From: an uncultured Latescibacterota bacterium
GTDB lineage: Bacteria > Latescibacterota > UBA2968
Direction: 5' to 3'
DNA: 64,000 bases
NCBI GenBank assembly: GCA_958295785.1
Contig: OY282377.1
Coordinates: 1,006,394 to 1,070,393, forward strand
In this document: piece by piece, positions 2,146 through 51,742 of the stretch
How positions within the stretch are numbered: the first letter of the stretch is position 1
Layout of the letters: the number at the start of each line of letters is the position of its first letter
Made by a program: the position numbers and the translations under genes
The notes under the pieces: generated by a model
Seen by the model: the letters and a program-made list of their open reading frames with translations, nothing else
Database searches by the model: none
Told to the model about the DNA's origin: nothing

Positions 2146-3660
2146 TTACCTTTTTCCAAACGCCTCTTGAAGATACGCCAGATCGAGTTCGGGATAGAGG
2201 GGGAAACGCGCGAGGAGGGTGGCGATTTTTTTTTGGGCATTTTCGAGGACGCCATCTTTGACTTTGTATTTGATCTTGCTGAACTGACCCGCGCTTTTGC
2301 CGCGGGTGAATTTCAAGGGCCGCGCTTGGGTCAGAACATCGCCCATGATAGTGCCGATTTCGCACATTTCTCCTGCTCCCATGCCAAGGGTCGTCAGCGC
2401 GGGCGTGCCCACTCTGAGGCCGCTGGTGTACCACGGGCCGTTGGGATCAAAGGGAATGGTATTTTTGTTGAGGGTCATGCCAGCTTCGCGCAGCAGGGCC
2501 TCGGCTTGGCGACCTGTGAGATTGAAGGGCGTGACGTCGATCTGGATCAGGTGATTGTCCGTGCCGCCGGTGAGCACCGTAAGCCCCGCGTTGAGGCACG
2601 CTTGCGCGAGTGTATGGGCATTTTCGACAATTTTGCCCGCATACGCCTGAAATTCAGGGGTGCTGGCTTCGCGCAATGCGATGGCCTTGGCCGCCATCAC
2701 ATGGGGCAAAGGCCCGCCGAGCACCATGGGGCAGCCTTTATCGACCTGATCGGCAAATTCCTCAATGCACAACACCATGCCCCCTCTGGGGCCGCGCAGG
2801 GTTTTGTGGGTGGTGGTGGTGATGACATGGGCATGGGCAACGGGGTCAAAGTCGTCGCTGAAAACTTTGCCGGCAACAAGCCCGGCAAAATGCGCCATAT
2901 CGACCATCAAAACAGCCCCCACCTCGTCGGCGATTTCCCGGAAGATGCGAAAGTTCATTTTGCGCGGATACGCGCTGTAACCCGCCAAGAGAATCAAAGG
3001 GTGGATGGCTTTGGCCCGATCGCGGATGGCGTCGTAGTCGAGCAAACCCGATGCTTTGTCAACCGTGTATGCATGCGCGTCAAACATCCGCCCGGAAACA
3101 TTGATGCGATAGCCGTGCGTGAGGTGCCCGCCCGAAGAGAGATCGAGGCCCAAGAGCTTTTGATTGCCCAATTGCCTGCGAAGCGCGGCCCATGCTTTAT
3201 CGGAGAGATCAAAGGGCGATTTTTGACCCGCATTTTTCAGCGCGACATCTTGAACGCGCGCCGAGAGGATGGCCCAAAACGCGACCAGATTGGCGTCTGC
3301 GCCCGAATGGGGTTGCAGGTATGCGTGATCCGCGCCAAAGAGATCGCAGGCCAGTTTTGCGGCCAGGCTCTCAATGGCATCGACATTGTCACAGCCGGCG
3401 TAAAACCGGTGGTCGGGAATGCCCTCGGCGTATTTGTCGGTCAGCAAATTGCCCATCGCCAGTTGCGCGGCCAAAGAACAATAATTTTCGCTGGCAATCA
3501 TTTTGAGATTGGCGCGCTGGTCCGCCAATTCGGCCACGATGTTTTTTGCAACATCGGGAGATACAGACGCGACTTGCTCCAGCGCGGCCAAATAGGCGAC
3601 AAAGCCGGGGTTTGGGGTGGGATTTTGAGACAGGTACTCGGCAAGGGGACTGGTGGACAC
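2146..3660 (-). CDS. glyA: Serine hydroxymethyltransferase (long form)
   Basis: This PLP enzyme interconverts serine plus tetrahydrofolate with glycine plus 5,10-methylene-tetrahydrofolate. The start is a GTG at 3660 preceded by GAGGAGAAAACC; the frame is open for 10 more codons upstream but without a ribosome site. The 504 residues are longer than the usual ~415 and match the roughly 500-residue long form known from chlamydiae and others. The PLP lysine is K286 in [18 protein letters not shown] (about 54) and HRFYAG (about 84) are also typical. Transcription is predicted to be controlled by the ZTP riboswitch in the leader (3689-3790). It stands alone, with no other folate gene adjacent. Confidence 0.95.
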
Positions 3661-3688
3661 TGGTTTTCTCCTCGTGTGATCCAGATAC

Positions 3689-3717
3689 AAAAATAGCCCG
3701 AGCTACAAAGCCCAGGC
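3689..3717 (-). terminator. Riboswitch expression-platform terminator of glyA leader
   Basis: On the minus strand GCCTGGGCT (3717-3709), loop TTGT, then AGCTCGGGC (3704-3696) form a 9-pair stem with G-U wobbles, followed by TATTTTTG. The 5' arm reuses the conserved CCTGGGC of the ZTP aptamer. Aptamer folding and termination are therefore mutually exclusive, the standard on-switch design. Confidence 0.75.
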
Positions 3718-3790
3718 GAGCGGCTATCGGATTGGAGGGGCCGCGCTTCCCCGTGGTCAATTCCACGTTCATTCGCCAGTCGCGCAGGCC
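3710..3790 (-). ncRNA. ZTP (pfl) riboswitch aptamer upstream of glyA
   Basis: The minus strand carries the ordered conserved elements of the pfl/ZTP class: GACTGGCG (3781-3774), ACGTGGA (3768-3762), CCACGGGGA (3756-3748) and GCCTGGGC (3717-3710). CGTGG pairs with CCACG around a 6-nt loop. A P1-like helix forms between GCCTGCGC (3789-3782, one bulged T) and GCGCGGC (3746-3740). ZTP/ZMP, the alarmones of 10-formyl-THF shortage, are known ligands, and glyA is a classic target of the class. Element recognition is by eye; no covariance model was run. Confidence 0.8.
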
Positions 3791-3802
3791 ACTGTGAAAA
3801 CC

Positions 3803-8877: not shown

Positions 8878-10314
8878 CTATACAATTCGGAAATAGTCGA
8901 TGAGGGCGCAACGGCGTTGGCGGGTAAATGTGCGGGCAGAGGTGCAGCCCTCGCCGGTGGGCGTGGCAATGGAGAACGAGGTATAACCTTCGCCCCCCGC
9001 GCCCAATCCCGCAGAAGACGCGCCGTTTTTGACGAAGATCGCACACTTGCAGCGACGCGCCATGACGGTCATATTCTCCACATTTTTAGAGTGCATGACC
9101 GCTGTGTGGCGATACCCCTGTTCGGCGCGAATCGCCCAGTCAATTGCCGTGTGAACATCGGGCGTGCGAACAATGGGGATGAACGGCATCATCTGCTCGT
9201 GTTGCACAAAGTCGTGCTCGTTATCGACCTCGCCGATCAAAAGCTCTGTGTCCGGCGACACATTGAGGTCAATGTGGGCGGCGAGCACATGGGCACTGCG
9301 CCCGACCAACTCGCGGTTGAGCGACCAATCGCCCTTCGCGTCGCGGGGAAACGCAATTTTCGTCAGCGCATCGATCTGATTGCGGTCGAGCACCACGCAG
9401 TTGTTCGCGCTCAAGTGGCGCGTCAGTTCGTCGGCAACCGGTTGCACCACAAAAATTTCTTTTTCCCCAATGCAGAGAATATTGTTGTCAAAACCGCCGC
9501 CTTCAACAATGCCGAGCGCGGCCTTTTCGATATCCGCGGTCTCATCCACCACCACCGGGGGATTGCCCGGCCCGGCGGCAATCACGCGCTTGGGGGCCTG
9601 CATCGCCGCCTTGACAACGCCGCCGCCGCCTGTGACGAGGACGAGATCCACACTCGGATGCACAAAAAGGGCTTGCGCGGTTTCGATACTCGGTTCGCGC
9701 ACCGCAACGAGCAAATTAGGCGGCCCCCCCGCACCTGTGATGGCGCGGTTGAGCATTTGCAGACCCAGTAGCGAAACGTTTTTCGCGCTCGGATGCGGGG
9801 CAAAAATCGCGCTGTTGCCCGCTGCGATCAGGCTGATGGTATTGTTGACTATCGTGGGTACCGGATGCGTGGATGGCGTGACTGCTGCAACCACCCCAAA
9901 GGGCGCCATCTCAACAACCGTCAGGCCATTGTCGCCCGTCCAAGCGATGGGGTGCAGGTCTTCGACCCCGGGCGTGTGCTGTGCCACGACCTCGAACTTG
10001 CGAATTTTGTGCGGCACTTTGCCCATGCCGGTTTCTTCCACGGTTTTTTGCGCGAGGCCCTTTGAATGTGCCAGGGATTCGCGGCGAATCGCAGCGATGA
10101 TGCCGCGGCGCTGGTCCAAGCTCATGGCTTCAAGGCCGCGTTGCGCTTCCACCGCAGCGGCAATGGCGTCTTCGAGGTCGTCGAAGATTCCCTCGTCGCC
10201 CTTGCCCTCGCAACGCGCAGGCGGCGCAACAACCGCAGGCGCCGCGTCTTCGGTCACGAGATTACGCACCACCTGCTCGACCACCGATTGGATTTGCATT
10301 TCGTCTAAGTTCAT
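8878..10314 (-). CDS. CoA-acylating aldehyde dehydrogenase, microcompartment cargo (PduP/EutE type)
   Basis: The protein has 478 residues from ATG 10314. It oxidises an aldehyde to acyl-CoA with NAD+ and CoA; lactaldehyde is the expected substrate here. The N-terminal amphipathic helix MNLDEMQIQSVVEQVVRNL (1-19) followed by an Ala/Pro-rich linker is a typical encapsulation peptide. The catalytic cysteine is C281 in FDNNILCIGEKE, and TGGGGVV (228-234) and AAGPGNPP are also family-like. It lies within the shell operon between BMC-P2 and BMC-P3. PduL, encoded at the operon start, would recycle the CoA. Confidence 0.95.
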   Translation of the reverse strand: MNLDEMQIQSVVEQVVRNLVTEDAAPAVVAPPARCEGKGDEGIFDDLEDAIAAAVEAQRGLEAMSLDQRRGIIAAIRRESLAHSKGLAQKTVEETGMGKVPHKIRKFEVVAQHTPGVEDLHPIAWTGDNGLTVVEMAPFGVVAAVTPSTHPVPTIVNNTISLIAAGNSAIFAPHPSAKNVSLLGLQMLNRAITGAGGPPNLLVAVREPSIETAQALFVHPSVDLVLVTGGGGVVKAAMQAPKRVIAAGPGNPPVVVDETADIEKAALGIVEGGGFDNNILCIGEKEIFVVQPVADELTRHLSANNCVVLDRNQIDALTKIAFPRDAKGDWSLNRELVGRSAHVLAAHIDLNVSPDTELLIGEVDNEHDFVQHEQMMPFIPIVRTPDVHTAIDWAIRAEQGYRHTAVMHSKNVENMTVMARRCKCAIFVKNGASSAGLGAGGEGYTSFSIATPTGEGCTSARTFTRQRRCALIDYFRIV

Positions 10315-10418
10315 AAGCCTACTCGCATGACAATCCTCTGGCGAATATATTGAAATGTCGTTCAGTTTGCTTTGCCATAGCGCGCCGCCTTTCAGCTTGT
10401 TTTGCTGACCCCTGACCG

Positions 10419-10709
10419 CTATTTCCGATAAATCGCTTCGCCTTCAATTTCTGCCGCGTCGATGATGGCGACGATGACCGCGTCAACTGGGCGATTTTCA
10501 GTCGCGCTCGTCATGCGCGCAGAACTCCCGCTGCAACAGAGCACGACTTCTCCATCGCCTGCCCCCACGGCATCTACGGCCACCACAAAACTCGCTTTGG
10601 GTTCGAGCGAGGGCAAGTCGAGGGTCTGGACAATTTGGAGCTTAAAACCGTCCAACCCGCTGTCTTTTTGGGTGGCAACCACGGTTCCCACCACTTTGCC
10701 GAGGGTCAT
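10419..10709 (-). CDS. Microcompartment pentameric shell protein (BMC-P) 3
   Basis: The protein has 96 residues from ATG 10709. The sequence MTLGKVVGTVVATQKDSGLD, then VVAVDAVGAGDGEVVLCCSG and VIVAIIDAAEIEG, is EutN/CcmL family. It starts 3 nt after the stop of the first BMC-H gene, so the two are tightly coupled. A 104-bp gap containing a GCTGACCCCTGACCGC repeat fragment separates it from the aldehyde dehydrogenase. It forms vertex pentamers and is the most divergent of the three, with a Cys pair (LCC) in the central strand. Confidence 0.93.
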   Translation of the reverse strand: MTLGKVVGTVVATQKDSGLDGFKLQIVQTLDLPSLEPKASFVVAVDAVGAGDGEVVLCCSGSSARMTSATENRPVDAVIVAIIDAAEIEGEAIYRK

Positions 10710-10712
10710 GGT

Positions 10713-11000
10713 TTAATCGTCTGAAGACGCGCCAATGGGCAGAATTTTTTCCAGACTGCCGTGCGGTCTTGGAATGACGTGAACGGAAACGAGTTCGCCA
10801 ATTTTGCCAGCCGCGGCTGCGCCAGCTTCGGTCGCAGCTTTGACCGCTGCCACATCGCCGCGCACCATCGCGGTGACATATCCCGCGCCAATGCGCTCCC
10901 AATTGACAAATTGGACATTGGCGGCTTTGACCATCGCGTCCGCCGCTTCGATCATCGCGACGAGACCTTTGGTTTCGATCATGCCGAGAGCTTCACCCAT
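10713..11000 (-). CDS. Microcompartment hexameric shell protein (BMC-H, PduA/EutM family) 1
   Basis: The protein has 95 residues from ATG 11000, with CAGGAGGAATTGC upstream. It is a single BMC domain: [20 protein letters not shown], pore loop [19 protein letters not shown] and the C-terminal [16 protein letters not shown]. Hexamers tile the facets, and the GAG pore differs from the KIGSG of PduA/EutM. A second BMC-H precedes it by 24 nt. Confidence 0.96.
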
Positions 11001-11024: not shown

Positions 11025-11318
11025 TCACTGTGTCTGAAAAACAACCGCATCTACTTGCGGATCGAGATTTGGAATGACGTGAACGGCCACGAGGTCGCCA
11101 ACCCGTTCAGCGGCACGGGTGCCCGCTTCAAGGGCCGCACAAACCGCCCCCACATCGCCGCGCACGAGCGTGGTCGTATATCCCGCGCCGATTTTTTCGT
11201 ATCTTTCAATGGCGACATTCGCGGTCTTGACCATCGCATCGGCCGCTTCCGTCGTGCCAATAACGCCGAGTGTTTCGATCATGCCAAGAGCTGAAGCCAT
11301 GGTCAAATCCAGTTGCAT
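11025..11318 (-). CDS. Microcompartment hexameric shell protein (BMC-H) 2
   Basis: The protein has 97 residues if ATG 11318 is used (AGGA 8 nt upstream), or 91 from ATG 11300; I prefer the former. It is a BMC domain with SALGMIETLGVIGTTEAADA, pore loop EKIGAGYTTTLVRGDVGAV and VHVIPNLDPQVD. It lacks the EKILP tail of paralogue 1 and ends with a hydrophobic VDAVVFQTQ. It is the first shell gene of the operon, separated from the upstream ATPase gene by 133 bp containing two GC-rich hairpin repeats. Confidence 0.95.
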   Translation of the reverse strand: MQLDLTMASALGMIETLGVIGTTEAADAMVKTANVAIERYEKIGAGYTTTLVRGDVGAVCAALEAGTRAAERVGDLVAVHVIPNLDPQVDAVVFQTQ

Positions 11319-11360
11319 TATTTTAATCCTCGCTCCCCACGTTTCTATCCTTGTATCTTC

Positions 11361-11433
11361 GGGCGAGCACGGGGGTCTCGCCCCTACGTTTCTATCCTTG
11401 CATTTTCGGGCAAGCACGGGGCCTCGCCCCTAC
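11361..11433 (+). repeat. Two adjacent GC-rich hairpin repeats inside the microcompartment operon
   Basis: GGGCGAGCACGGGGGTCTCG (from 11361) and GGGCAAGCACGGGGCCTCG (from 11408), each followed by CCCCTACGTTT and TCTATCCTTG-like flanks. They lie between the ATPase stop and the first BMC-H and could attenuate read-through. Confidence 0.7.
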
Positions 11434-11451
11434 GTTTGACTTTTTGTTTCG

Positions 11452-13029
11452 TTAGTGCATCCCGGTCTGTCGCCATGAATTGATCTGTTCTTCGAGTCCA
11501 ATGCGGAACTCGCTTATTGTTTTCCCATTTTTCTCTGTTTCCAATTTTCCGACGATCCGTGCGACCTCGGGCGCTGATCGATTCAATTCATCGGCGAGGA
11601 TCGCCAATTTCGCTTTTGGAATATCCCGTGACCGCACATTGGGATCTCCCGAAAAGGTCTGTTCAATAGACAACAGCCTCTGATTCAAGGCATTGGCAGG
11701 CATGCCAAATTCAATGGCGTAGGCTTCGGAATTTCTTTGGACGGTGTCCCACAACCAACTTTCCGGAGAGGAGATACCGGGAAGGAAAATCGGCTCTATG
11801 CTGTGACCGTATTGCGTAGCAATGCTTTGCAAGGCGGGCGCGTGGGCGCGTGCATCTCCGTCTAACACAAAGACAAAGCCGGCCAGTGCCTCGATCTTCC
11901 CGAGTGTGTGGATGTGCGCTTTAAATTCATCGCTTCCCGTATCTCTTCCAATGCGGAAATCGTCGTGGCGCGTACCGATTTTGTGGTTCAACACATCCAA
12001 CGCGCCGAGGATCACCCCCTCGGCGACCTCGTCTTCGCAGAGAATGGAAAGCCGATCTGTGGACTGCCCGTACAGGGCCTTTAGAAAAATATCTCGATAG
12101 GCGGGCAGACGCGCTACATCCAAGGTCTGTGCATCTCGTTCAAAAAAAAGCCTGGCCTCAGGGGGGACGCTATCCAACACGACAGGGCTGTGAGAAGTCA
12201 CAATGATCTGCAAATCGTTCCGCAGGGCAATGCGCTGGAGTTCCAACATGATCTGCTGTTGCGTGTAGGGATGGAGCCCGGCTTCTACTTCGTCAATGAG
12301 AATCAGCGCGCCCTTCAGGTTGGATATGTCCTTGGAGATGCGTAAGATAGATCTTTCTCCCGCAGACATGTGAAACTCCGAGTATTTCACCGCCTGGTGC
12401 CCTTCGATGCCCGCAAAGAGCAAGTCGCGGTTTTTTGCGCGAATCAACGAGACATCGCGGTAGCGTTGCGGTAGAATGCGGTGGGCGAAAAGCAATCGTT
12501 CCGCGGTGATTTCCTCGGCATCAAACTGCCTTCGGCTCAGTTGCAGAATGCCTCTCACTTCAGAAGGGTTGGTCAAGTTGGCCAAGGTGCGGAGATAGAG
12601 TGCTCTTTCGGGTTGCCCCACACCCTTGCGTCCCATGAAGTTTTTCCCCCAGGACTTTCTCCTTTTCCATTCCATGGCATACCGCTTGCCTCCGGCCAGA
12701 TAGTAGAACTCGAGGGAAGTTTCGCCCCTTATATCCGAGAGCGCGCCGTCGCGCGTGTCGGTAAAACTGGGGAACAAAGTGGCGGGCGTAAAAGCGCGCA
12801 AACTGCGGTCTTTCGGTTTGTAGGCTGCGGCGCAGGCAAAGAGAACAGTCGATTTGCCACACCCGTTCGGACCGGCGAGCACGGAAACCGGGTACTCAAA
12901 AGGCACCCGCAAGCCCCTAATGCCGCGCAAATTGTTGAGGCGAACTTCGTCGAGGAAATCGTTTTGCTGGGCTTTTTTGCTCCGAAGCGAATCCCATACC
13001 GCCACCAAACTCTTGGTCATCATGGACAT
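11452..13029 (-). CDS. AAA/ABC-type ATPase with TOPRIM-like C-terminus (OLD-family-like) inside the microcompartment operon
   Basis: The protein has 525 residues. ATG 13029 follows GGGAGGCAGTAAAA, and the ribosome site lies in the end of pduL, whose stop is 2 nt away. Walker A is GPNGCGKST (53-61), signature SAGERS (222-227), Walker B ALILIDEVEAGLHP (241-254) and switch histidine H280 (VTSHSP). The C-terminal half carries a TOPRIM-like set: CEDEVAEG (331-338) and VLDGDAR (388-394). This matches OLD/GajA-like ATPase-nucleases, which usually belong to defence systems. No such gene is a normal part of shell operons. Base composition looks slightly A+T-richer than its neighbours by eye. It is either a transferred defence gene or a locus-specific partner. 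Confidence 0.8.
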   Translation of the reverse strand: MSMMTKSLVAVWDSLRSKKAQQNDFLDEVRLNNLRGIRGLRVPFEYPVSVLAGPNGCGKSTVLFACAAAYKPKDRSLRAFTPATLFPSFTDTRDGALSDIRGETSLEFYYLAGGKRYAMEWKRRKSWGKNFMGRKGVGQPERALYLRTLANLTNPSEVRGILQLSRRQFDAEEITAERLLFAHRILPQRYRDVSLIRAKNRDLLFAGIEGHQAVKYSEFHMSAGERSILRISKDISNLKGALILIDEVEAGLHPYTQQQIMLELQRIALRNDLQIIVTSHSPVVLDSVPPEARLFFERDAQTLDVARLPAYRDIFLKALYGQSTDRLSILCEDEVAEGVILGALDVLNHKIGTRHDDFRIGRDTGSDEFKAHIHTLGKIEALAGFVFVLDGDARAHAPALQSIATQYGHSIEPIFLPGISSPESWLWDTVQRNSEAYAIEFGMPANALNQRLLSIEQTFSGDPNVRSRDIPKAKLAILADELNRSAPEVARIVGKLETEKNGKTISEFRIGLEEQINSWRQTGMH

Positions 13030-13031
13030 TT

Positions 13032-13769
13032 TTACTGCCTCCCAACGGAGGTCATAAGCTTCTGTGTCAAAATATACACCGTATCGCCGCACACGAGATC
13101 CGCGGCATTGGCATCGTCTGTATCCAGATGGAGTTCGGGCAAATAGCTGTCGTCAATTTTGAGGCGCACATTTTCATACGTAACGCCTTTCTCGCCGCGC
13201 ACGCACACGTGCACGGATTCTCGTCCCTCAAAGCCGTAGCGCGTTACGTCCTCTGGGCGCAGGTGAATGTGGCGCGCCGCGCGAATGGCCGCATCGAGCG
13301 TGACCGCGCCCTTGGGGCCGATAAACGTGACGGACTCGGCATCTGCGAGATCGCCCGAATCGCGCACGGGCGGGTCAACGCCGAGAAAAATCGCGTCTGT
13401 TCGGGCGAGTTCGACCTGATTGTAGGAGCGGCTGGGCCCTAGGATACGCACGCGCTCAATTGCACGCAACCGAGGGCCAACCACGGAAATGACTTCCTCG
13501 GCGGCAAACGCGCCGGGTTGATAGAGATCGCGGTAGGGCGTTAGCGCGTGCCTCGGGCCAAATAGAATTTCGAGCGTTTCATCATCCACATGGGCATGGC
13601 GGGCCGATACCCCAACCGAAATGGGAATCCCTTCGCCATCTCCGCCGCGGATCTGGCGCGCTACTTCTCGCGCAATGCGGTCAACAGCATTGCTTTCCAC
13701 GCTGTTTTGCCCGAAAGCACAAAGGCCGCAGTCCTCGCAGGCAGAGGCATTTTTTGGCATTGGAATCAT
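13032..13769 (-). CDS. pduL: Phosphate acyltransferase PduL, microcompartment cargo
   Basis: The protein has 245 residues from ATG 13769. PduL converts acyl-CoA plus phosphate to acyl-phosphate, recycling CoA inside the shell. Metal-site histidine pairs are visible: H58/H60 (SARHAHV), H167/H169 (RHIHLRPED) and H214 (LHLDTDDANA). The two-barrel arrangement and length fit the family. The N-terminus carries an amphipathic helix, VDRIAREVARQIR (29-41), which looks like an encapsulation peptide, preceded by an unusual C11-x2-C-x2-C cluster (ACEDCGLCAF). First gene of the operon, with a promoter candidate at 13809-13837 and translational coupling to the downstream ATPase. Confidence 0.93.
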   Translation of the reverse strand: MIPMPKNASACEDCGLCAFGQNSVESNAVDRIAREVARQIRGGDGEGIPISVGVSARHAHVDDETLEILFGPRHALTPYRDLYQPGAFAAEEVISVVGPRLRAIERVRILGPSRSYNQVELARTDAIFLGVDPPVRDSGDLADAESVTFIGPKGAVTLDAAIRAARHIHLRPEDVTRYGFEGRESVHVCVRGEKGVTYENVRLKIDDSYLPELHLDTDDANAADLVCGDTVYILTQKLMTSVGRQ

Positions 13770-48919: not shown

Positions 48920-51682
48920 TTACCCGATAGGCTGCCCGAATTTCTCGGCAAATGCGATAAAATCGTCAAAGCCGACTTGCCCATCGCCATCGAGATCGTA
49001 GCGCGGATCGAATTGTTCATCATCCGATGACGTGCCAAACGCCCTCGCAAACAAAATAAAATCGTCGAAGTCAACTTGCCCATCGCCATTAAAATCGGGA
49101 TTGGAAACTCTGCCCGTGCCAGACAAGCCAATTTCGAGCGTATCGGACGCCGACACAATCCGCAACATACCCTGATGATCCCCCGCCATACCCGGCGCGA
49201 ATCGAACGCGAATGGCGTGCGTGTCTCCCGCGTTCAGCGTATCGGGCAACGGTATATCGGGCGAGTCGGGCACGAGTGCTTGGGCAAATCCATTGCCCGA
49301 AATCAGCACGTTCGAAATGATCTGCGCGATATTTCCATCGTTGGAAACCGTCACGGTTTGCAAGCTGTCTTCGCCCACCCCGACCGTCCCAAAATCGAGC
49401 TCGTCGTAATCTACCCGAGGTAGCGATTGAATGCCGCGCCCGGAAAGCGGAATCAGGTATGTCGTATCCCCAGTAGCGATCCGCAGCGTATCGCGTATCG
49501 CCCCCCGCACGCGCGGATTGAAGTTCACCTCTATCGCCGCGCTATCGCTACCGGCCACAGTGAGGGGCAACGCCACATCGGTCACAAAATTGCTATCGGA
49601 ACGCGCAAAATCAATCGCGTTGATACGCAGGGCATCCGCGTTGGGATTGGTCACAGTGACAGATTGTGACGAGTCTTGCCCCACAAAAACATCGCCAAAC
49701 GCGAGCGAATCGGGCATGACCCGCACGATGTCCGTCACAGAAGCCCGAACTTGAACCACAACGGGCGTCGGGTCGTCGGTATTAGAGGTAATCGTCAAAG
49801 TGCCAGAAAAAGGACCAACATCAGTCGCCGTATAGGTCACGCGCACAGGCATCCCATGGCCGCTGGGGTCCAACCAGTTGCCGACGATACGCGGTCTGTT
49901 CGTCATTGCCGGCGTGTCCGACGAAGCAGCCACAAAACCGGCCAGGCGGTCGCTCATGTTAAAAACGCGCACCGAATCTTGCACTGTTGTGCCCAAGCGC
50001 ACAGTGCCAAAATCGATCAGCCGAGGAACGGCGTCGAGGCCATTGGCGCCAATGCGCTTTGCGCTGATCGCATCGCGTTCCCCGCGATAGCCGCGCAAAA
50101 CCACATCGCCTATCGAAATCAGAGCTTGCACATCGGATTGTCCTTTGAGGGGCCGCACACTGATTTCAGCCAAATCCAAATAACTGGGGGTATGTACCAG
50201 CGCGCCAAATCCCATCCCCACAATTTCCGCGCCGGTGCGCGTTTTGTGAATGGGCAAAACCCCGCCGCCTGCGCGATCCCGCGCCCAGCGCAAATCCACG
50301 TCATTCCGATTGTACTTCAAAACGATCCGATACCCGCCCAACCGCTTGAGCCCGCGCGCAAAAATTTTCAACTCCTCGCCCTCGCCCTGAATCCGCACAG
50401 CCGCCTCGCCATTGGCACCGGAAACCACATCTACTCGGTCGAGATACGCGAGGTCAACCCCGCCGCCGAGTACATCGGCCAGCAAAAAAGCGTCGTCTGC
50501 ATCCACAACCCCATCGCGGTCCAAATCGTACTTGCTCGATCTGAGCGTTTGCCCAAACCGAGTGATCAACGGGTCAAAATCGCCGTAATCCACCGTGCCA
50601 TTGGTATCGAAATCGGCGATAACGCGCGTCAATCCCGCGTCGCCCTCCTCTCGCACGTGCGCCATAACGTGTACGCGGATATTTTCGCGTTTTTTTCGAT
50701 TCGTCTGGACATTGATATAACCCCAAAAAACGCCGAGTTGCATAGGGGTGACCGTCAATTTGATCTCTTGCATCCTACGTGCGCTCAAGCCGTTGGTCGA
50801 ATCGGTCAGCACCCCTATGCTTCTAGGGGTAACGGCTATTTCCGATCCCGATGTGGTCAACTCAAACGAGAGTTTGCGCGTCGTGCCGGGCGGCACTTTT
50901 TGCGTATCAAAGGTATTCTTAATCGAAAAGGTGTCCGGGACTGTTTTGCCAAGTGCGAGATGACCCAAATCAAAAATTCGGCGCGAAACGAGCACATCTT
51001 CCAGCGCGACCTTGCTGATGTTGCCACTGGCGATCTCATTGCGTTCGCCGTGGTAGTTGTGGTTGAGCAGATCATACCGAGTGCCGCGCAAATGCGCGGA
51101 TTCAATGTCAACGCCCGTTGCATCGCCCTTAAAGATCACTTTTGCGATCAATTCCGGCGGATCAATCTCCTGATTGCCCAATGTCAATCCGACGATCTCC
51201 ACGCCATCAACTGTGCGGCGCACCGGCAACAGCCCAATGCCTATTAGATCGTGTACCTTGCTGAGGGAAACCCCTTCGGGCAAGGAAAAGACAATGCGAT
51301 ACCCTCCAATGCGATTAATATCTGTTAAATAGATCAAATAACCATTGCCATCTGGATCGAGGCGCAACTTTGCCTGGGGGTTTTTCCCCTCACGAGTTTT
51401 CAAAGACGCCTCGGAGGCGTCGTCTGAAAACACATCGGCAAATAAGAACGCATCTTCGCCATCCACCTCGCCATCATTGTTCAAATCCAGCGCGGGGTCT
51501 ATCGCCGCTTGGGGGGGTTGCCTGAATTGGGCCATCAACCGCGAGAAATCGGCAAAATCGACCGCGCCATTGCCGTCAAAATCGGCCGATACCGGTATCG
51601 GTATCGGTATCCGTTGCGCCCATGCCGTTCCCGCACTCAAAAAACAAAAACCAATCACGAAAAAAAACAGGCTATTTCGCAT
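48920..51682 (-). CDS. Secreted protein with six dockerin-like Ca-binding repeats and Hydin/choice-of-anchor-D repeats
   Basis: The protein has 920 residues; ATG 51682 lies ten bases after GGAGG (an ATG at 51691 is too close). Signal peptide MRNSLFFFVIGFCFLSAGTA with cleavage after WA. Three pairs of EF-hand-like dockerin motifs: near 33-85 (ADFDGNGAVDFADF, LDLNNDGEVDGEDAF), mid-protein (ADFDTNGTVDYGDF, LDRDGVVDADDAF) and the C-terminus (PDFNGDGQVDFDDF, LDGDGQVGFDDF). Between the last pairs are at least three ASPM-SPD2-Hydin-like beta domains (LIDFGTVRLGTTVQDSVRV, LAFGDVFVGQDSSQSVTV, DELDFGTVGVGEDSLQTVTV). Likely an extracellular or surface scaffold. Cohesin-like partners not seen here. Confidence 0.85.
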   Translation of the reverse strand: MRNSLFFFVIGFCFLSAGTAWAQRIPIPIPVSADFDGNGAVDFADFSRLMAQFRQPPQAAIDPALDLNNDGEVDGEDAFLFADVFSDDASEASLKTREGKNPQAKLRLDPDGNGYLIYLTDINRIGGYRIVFSLPEGVSLSKVHDLIGIGLLPVRRTVDGVEIVGLTLGNQEIDPPELIAKVIFKGDATGVDIESAHLRGTRYDLLNHNYHGERNEIASGNISKVALEDVLVSRRIFDLGHLALGKTVPDTFSIKNTFDTQKVPPGTTRKLSFELTTSGSEIAVTPRSIGVLTDSTNGLSARRMQEIKLTVTPMQLGVFWGYINVQTNRKKRENIRVHVMAHVREEGDAGLTRVIADFDTNGTVDYGDFDPLITRFGQTLRSSKYDLDRDGVVDADDAFLLADVLGGGVDLAYLDRVDVVSGANGEAAVRIQGEGEELKIFARGLKRLGGYRIVLKYNRNDVDLRWARDRAGGGVLPIHKTRTGAEIVGMGFGALVHTPSYLDLAEISVRPLKGQSDVQALISIGDVVLRGYRGERDAISAKRIGANGLDAVPRLIDFGTVRLGTTVQDSVRVFNMSDRLAGFVAASSDTPAMTNRPRIVGNWLDPSGHGMPVRVTYTATDVGPFSGTLTITSNTDDPTPVVVQVRASVTDIVRVMPDSLAFGDVFVGQDSSQSVTVTNPNADALRINAIDFARSDSNFVTDVALPLTVAGSDSAAIEVNFNPRVRGAIRDTLRIATGDTTYLIPLSGRGIQSLPRVDYDELDFGTVGVGEDSLQTVTVSNDGNIAQIISNVLISGNGFAQALVPDSPDIPLPDTLNAGDTHAIRVRFAPGMAGDHQGMLRIVSASDTLEIGLSGTGRVSNPDFNGDGQVDFDDFILFARAFGTSSDDEQFDPRYDLDGDGQVGFDDFIAFAEKFGQPIG

Positions 51683-51742
51683 CGAAACCATACCTCCGTA
51701 GATTGTTAAAACACTTTTCGATAACCTACACGACATCAGAAT

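What the first reader, a model, noticed from the sequence alone, without database searches (positions are those of the whole stretch)
11452..13029. OLD-like ATPase-TOPRIM gene embedded in a microcompartment operon
The gene starts 2 nt after pduL with its ribosome site inside pduL and precedes the shell genes. It carries a full ABC ATPase core plus TOPRIM-like acidic motifs, a pattern of defence nucleases (OLD, GajA), not of metabolosomes. Either it is a defence gene riding on a highly expressed operon, or a shell-associated ATPase not described so far. Two hairpin repeats flank its 3' side.
Basis: partly seen in the sequence, partly recalled or inferred. Interest (0 to 1): 0.7.

Follow-up and report, generated by a model that had tools for sequence, protein, structure and literature searches.

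The report
Antiphage nuclease inserted in microcompartment operon
A single-gene antiphage ATPase-nuclease, a relative of the known HEC-04/IbfA defence proteins, has dropped between two genes of a bacterial microcompartment operon in one species; the protein kind is known, and only its unusual landing place is new.

Summary
A 525-aa ORF (13029..11452, minus) starts 2 nt after pduL with its GGGAGG ribosome site inside pduL, and precedes two BMC shell genes. It has a complete ABC-ATPase core and a TOPRIM domain. Its best family match is HEC-04 (PADLOC, 139.7 bits), scoring like the experimentally tested IbfA of plasmid R64 (141.3 bits). It aligns with IbfA over both domains, and the key ATPase and TOPRIM residues are conserved in 19 of 19 relatives and, but for one signature-loop residue, in IbfA.

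It is not a microcompartment gene. In all 10 other species of the genus pduL directly abuts the shell gene, and none of them holds the ATPase. The relatives (42-70% identical) lie in MAGs of many phyla with no BMC or PduL genes in their flanks. Four sit beside HmaB; a near one lies behind a Kiwa KwaB gene. The window copy groups with Acidobacteriota copies, not with a second copy in its own genome, which indicates horizontal transfer. The 'hairpins' are copies of a dispersed repeat (over 170 sites).

Best reading: a horizontally acquired single-gene ATPase-TOPRIM defence protein inserted into a metabolic operon. New member of a known kind.

The parts
11452..13029 (-). HEC-04/IbfA-like ABC-ATPase-TOPRIM gene, 525 aa, single-gene defence candidate
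   Evidence: ORF; PADLOC HEC-04 2.7e-41; hhalign with IbfA 99.1%, E 6e-19; 17 relatives
12850..12891 (-). Walker A region PVSVLAGPNGCGKS (residues 47-60)
   Evidence: G53, G58 and K59 invariant in 19 of 19 relatives and in IbfA
12271..12369 (-). ABC signature MSAGER (residues 221-226) to Walker B LIDE and D-loop histidine (244-253)
   Evidence: G224, E225, D246, E247 and H253 invariant in 19 of 19
11761..12036 (-). TOPRIM core: E332 (CED), D390/D392 (LDGD), E423 (LPG..PE)
   Evidence: all four acids invariant in 19 of 19 and present in IbfA; beta-alpha-beta-alpha-beta order in the model
13030..13045 (-). ribosome-binding site GGGAGG and the pduL stop: translational junction
   Evidence: sequence GGGAGGCAGTAAAAATG; coupling itself is inferred
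11322..11451 (.). 130-nt spacer brought in with or after the insertion, holding two tandem copies of a dispersed palindromic repeat
   Evidence: absent from the congeners' junction
13032..13769 (-). pduL (phosphate propanoyltransferase); about 10 C-terminal residues differ from congeners at the insertion
   Evidence: PF06130; junction comparison
11025..11321 (-). BMC-H shell gene, directly after pduL in all 10 congeners
   Evidence: PF00936; synteny
10713..11000 (-). second BMC-H shell gene
   Evidence: PF00936

Best explanation
The gene is a horizontally acquired, single-gene antiphage protein of the HEC-04/IbfA kind. It entered the junction between pduL and the first shell gene of a microcompartment operon, most simply after this species split from its congeners. 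It has no clear promoter of its own; it is probably transcribed from the operon and translated by coupling to pduL. Most likely the ABC-ATPase part dimerises, senses a phage cue and licenses the TOPRIM part to cut nucleic acid, stopping the infection or the cell. Shown here: the insertion, the family, and the intact ATPase and TOPRIM residues. Inferred: expression by coupling, the sensing step, nuclease activity and the outcome.
For: HEC-04 is the best of 5027 defence models (139.7 bits), equal to IbfA of R64 (141.3 bits). hhalign of the family with IbfA spans both domains (residues 22-434, E 6e-19). IbfA is shown to reduce phage productivity, and HEC-04 is reported to act against T4 and T5 (PMC12111858). 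Fold matches: OLD nuclease 6p74 first, then GajA, PtuA and retron Eco8. E332, D390, D392 and E423 correspond by motif order to OLD ligands E377, D431, D433 and E480. Four of 17 relatives follow HmaB, with HmaC on the other side in three; the relative L069 has KwaB upstream. Empty site in 10 of 10 congeners. Only 2 of 64 phylum genomes hold the family. The window copy groups with three Acidobacteriota copies (97/100 support); grouping with the copy in its own genome is rejected (AU p 1e-4).
Against: Identity to IbfA is only 26%, so target and trigger may differ. The second metal site is not OLD-like: the residue four after E332 is Ala in all relatives. The IbfA passages read here do not report nuclease activity. 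No expression or phage data exist for this host. The AlphaFold model is only moderate (pLDDT 77, pTM 0.61; residues 151-221 poor), and the TM-scores to solved structures are low (about 0.33).
Confidence: 0.82

Rival explanations
1. The ATPase has been recruited to the microcompartment, for example as a shell-associated ATPase or a nuclease kept in the compartment.
For: It sits inside the operon with tight spacing and a ribosome site in pduL; the reading frame is intact.
Against: Absent from the operon in 10 of 10 congeners and three further family members that have pduL next to BMC genes. No BMC or PduL gene near any of 17 relatives, the own-genome second copy or the G046 copy. Relatives lie near Hma and Kiwa genes.
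Confidence: 0.04
2. A non-functional passenger: a chance insertion of a defence gene that is tolerated and will decay.
For: Present in a single species at this site; no promoter of its own beyond chance-level matches.
Against: The whole ORF is intact, the residues invariant in the family are kept, and it has a good ribosome site.
Confidence: 0.1
3. The protein is a GajA or class 1 OLD protein proper.
For: Top fold matches are OLD and GajA; same domain order.
Against: GajA models score about 50 bits against 140 for HEC-04; hhalign with P2 Old aligns only the ATPase (79%); the +4 acid of the OLD metal B site is Ala; no helicase gene adjacent.
Confidence: 0.04

Closest known systems
HEC-04 / IbfA (R64, pUA1135)
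   Same: Length (525 vs 518 aa), ABC ATPase plus TOPRIM in one chain, the same motifs in the same order, equal PADLOC score
   Different: 26% identity; IbfA is plasmid-borne next to proQ, this one lies in a chromosomal microcompartment operon; K472 and E337 are invariant here but absent in IbfA
Class 1 OLD nucleases (Ts OLD, P2 Old)
   Same: ABC ATPase then TOPRIM, stand-alone gene, metal A acids, nearest solved fold
   Different: the metal B acid four residues after the first Glu is Ala; all-helical C-terminus after the TOPRIM; no full-length profile match to P2 Old
Gabija GajA (class 2 OLD)
   Same: Overall ATPase-TOPRIM plan and fold match
   Different: no GajB helicase, much weaker profile score
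PtuA (Septu, retron I-A) and AriA (PARIS)
   Same: the ATPase core, best sequence matches in the PDB
   Different: their nuclease is a separate protein, here a TOPRIM is fused

Membership tests
HEC-04/IbfA | full-length match to the HEC-04 profile as the best family | tested here: met
   139.7 bits over residues 16-438, best of 5027 models; IbfA 141.3 bits
HEC-04/IbfA | ABC ATPase fused to TOPRIM in one gene | tested here: met
   motifs and model; alignment with IbfA over both
HEC-04/IbfA | found embedded in Hma loci | tested here: met
   met for relatives (HmaB upstream in four, HmaC downstream in three), not for the window copy itself
HEC-04/IbfA | antiphage activity | not testable with these tools
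   known for IbfA and HEC-04 from PMC12111858 only
OLD nuclease (class 1) | metal A acids Glu + DxD | tested here: met
   E332, D390, D392 in 19 of 19, by motif order and model; compare Ts OLD residues
OLD nuclease (class 1) | metal B acid four residues after the first Glu | tested here: not met
   A336 in 19 of 19 and in IbfA
OLD nuclease (class 1) | S/T/D-x-E metal B motif | tested here: inconclusive
   S421-P-E423 in the window; E423 invariant, position 421 varies
Gabija | adjacent GajB helicase | tested here: not met
   neighbours are pduL and BMC-H
microcompartment component | conserved presence in related BMC loci | tested here: not met
   absent in 10 of 10 congeners and 3 further family members

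The most novel reading that the evidence does not exclude
The insertion is adaptive: placing a costly defence nuclease behind pduL ties its dose to microcompartment metabolism, so that the cell is protected when it feeds on the compartment's substrate; or the protein has gained a role in the compartment.
Probability: 0.05. Interest if true: 0.7.

Novelty: new member of a known kind. Interest (0 to 1): 0.3.

Why it matters
It shows a defence gene outside any defence island, settled cleanly in a conserved metabolic operon with the empty site preserved in ten sister species. Such cases are missed by searches that look for defence islands. It also adds a diverse, cross-phylum clade to the HEC-04/IbfA family, with invariant residues that can be tested.

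Tried and rejected
GC and codon usage: the gene is ordinary for the window (GC 0.537, codon distance within the range of neighbours), so composition neither supports nor refutes transfer. Phage records: no full-length relative. Plasmids: only distant matches (28% identity or less over most of the length). The repeats as a regulator: the fold is not better than shuffles and over 170 copies exist. Promoter and terminator scans: near chance level. No target-site duplication or transposase was seen at the window insertion by eye. The host phylum could not be named by the tools.

Full report
The feature. The ORF 13029..11452 (minus) codes 525 aa. It starts two bases after the pduL stop; GGGAGG lies inside pduL. 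Most relatives begin at the same methionine. Downstream are a 130-nt spacer and two BMC-H genes, then EutN, an acylating aldehyde dehydrogenase of the EutE type, a second EutN and a class II aldolase.

The family. Pfam sees AAA_21/AAA_15. PADLOC gives HEC-04 with 139.7 bits, and the next model has half of that. IbfA of plasmid R64 (L083 20654-22210; taken as IbfA because it is the 518-aa ATPase gene next to proQ, as the paper describes) scores 141.3 bits on the same model. The profile of the window family aligns with IbfA from residue 22 to 434 with E 6e-19. The paper on IbfA (PMC12111858) reports that ibfA reduces productivity of a P22-like phage, and that HEC-04 is an ABC ATPase fused to TOPRIM with activity against T4 and T5, one of the genes found embedded in Hma systems.

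The domains. The ATPase residues G53, G58, K59, G224, E225, D246, E247, H253 and H280 and the TOPRIM residues E332, D333, D390, D392 and E423 are invariant in 19 of 19 relatives and present in IbfA; R226 of the signature loop is Gln in IbfA. In Ts OLD the metal A ligands are E377, D431 and D433, and the metal B ligands D381, S478 and E480 (PMC7049728). The order of motifs fits, but the +4 acid (D381) corresponds to A336, so the site is not simply that of OLD. This mapping rests on motif order and on the model's secondary structure; it is not a structural superposition. The model (17 sequences, pLDDT 77) finds the OLD nuclease 6p74 and GajA as first fold matches, with low TM-scores, probably because domain placement is uncertain.

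The insertion. In the ten other species of the genus held here pduL abuts the first BMC-H gene (overlap or up to about 20 nt), and the ATPase is absent there. In G011, G012 and G013 (same family) pduL is also followed by BMC-H (about 30, 45 and 376 nt) without an ATPase. A profile search of 64 genomes of the phylum finds the family only in this genome (two copies) and in G046. The second copy of the own genome (47% identical, G000:C1:1992487-1994016) stands among unrelated genes. The window copy forms a 97/100 supported group with three Acidobacteriota copies, and a clade with the own-genome second copy is rejected (AU p 1e-4). Two separate acquisitions are the simplest reading.

Contexts of relatives. 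17 loci in the genome collection, 42-70% identical, come from MAGs of Pseudomonadota, Acidobacteriota, Binatota, Chloroflexota, Spirochaetota, Tectimicrobiota and a Synechococcus bin. Many of these look like sponge metagenomes, which I infer from the record names and did not test. In L067, L068, L070 and L076 an HmaB gene lies upstream, and in three of them HmaC follows (PADLOC was run on L068 and L070 only, the others by similarity to those). L069 (69% identical) has a KwaB-like gene upstream and another AAA_21 ATPase downstream. L062 has transposase genes nearby. None has BMC or PduL genes within its flanks.

The repeats. The two tandem units at 11335-11434 belong to a dispersed palindrome of this genome: 67 matches to the palindrome against 5 in the control and 174 to the adjoining core against 0. 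They may have come later, or may have helped the insertion; nothing here decides.

Expression. In Poribacteria, a sponge phylum that has pduL and BMC genes, pduL and a BMC shell gene appeared to be part of one polycistron in a highly transcribed region (PMC5087111). Whether the host here is of that phylum was not established. Expression of the ATPase by the operon is therefore an inference.

Noticed in passing
L078 about 8973-10517 (G000:C1:1992487-1994016): A second, diverged HEC-04 copy in the same genome (47% identical; 164 bits on HEC-04), among unrelated metabolic genes.
   Followed up: partly
L089 (G000:C1:3990500-4010000): The genome carries an Hma-like locus (HmaB and part of HmaC) with two further ATPase genes in and next to it: a PD-T4-4_A-like one between HmaC and HmaB, and a HEC-01A-like one beyond HmaB.
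   Followed up: partly
window 11335-11434 and more than 170 sites genome-wide: Dispersed REP-like palindrome with core CAAGGATAGAAACGTAGGGGCGA.
   Followed up: partly
window 3703-3793 (-): ZTP riboswitch (60.6 bits) upstream of a serine hydroxymethyltransferase gene at 2146-3690.
   Followed up: partly
L069 5855-12697: HEC-04-like gene between a Kiwa KwaB-like gene and another AAA_21 ATPase: a probable defence island in an Acidobacteriota MAG.
   Followed up: partly
window 48920-51736 (-): A 938-aa protein with HYDIN-like Ig, dockerin and EF-hand matches.
   Followed up: no
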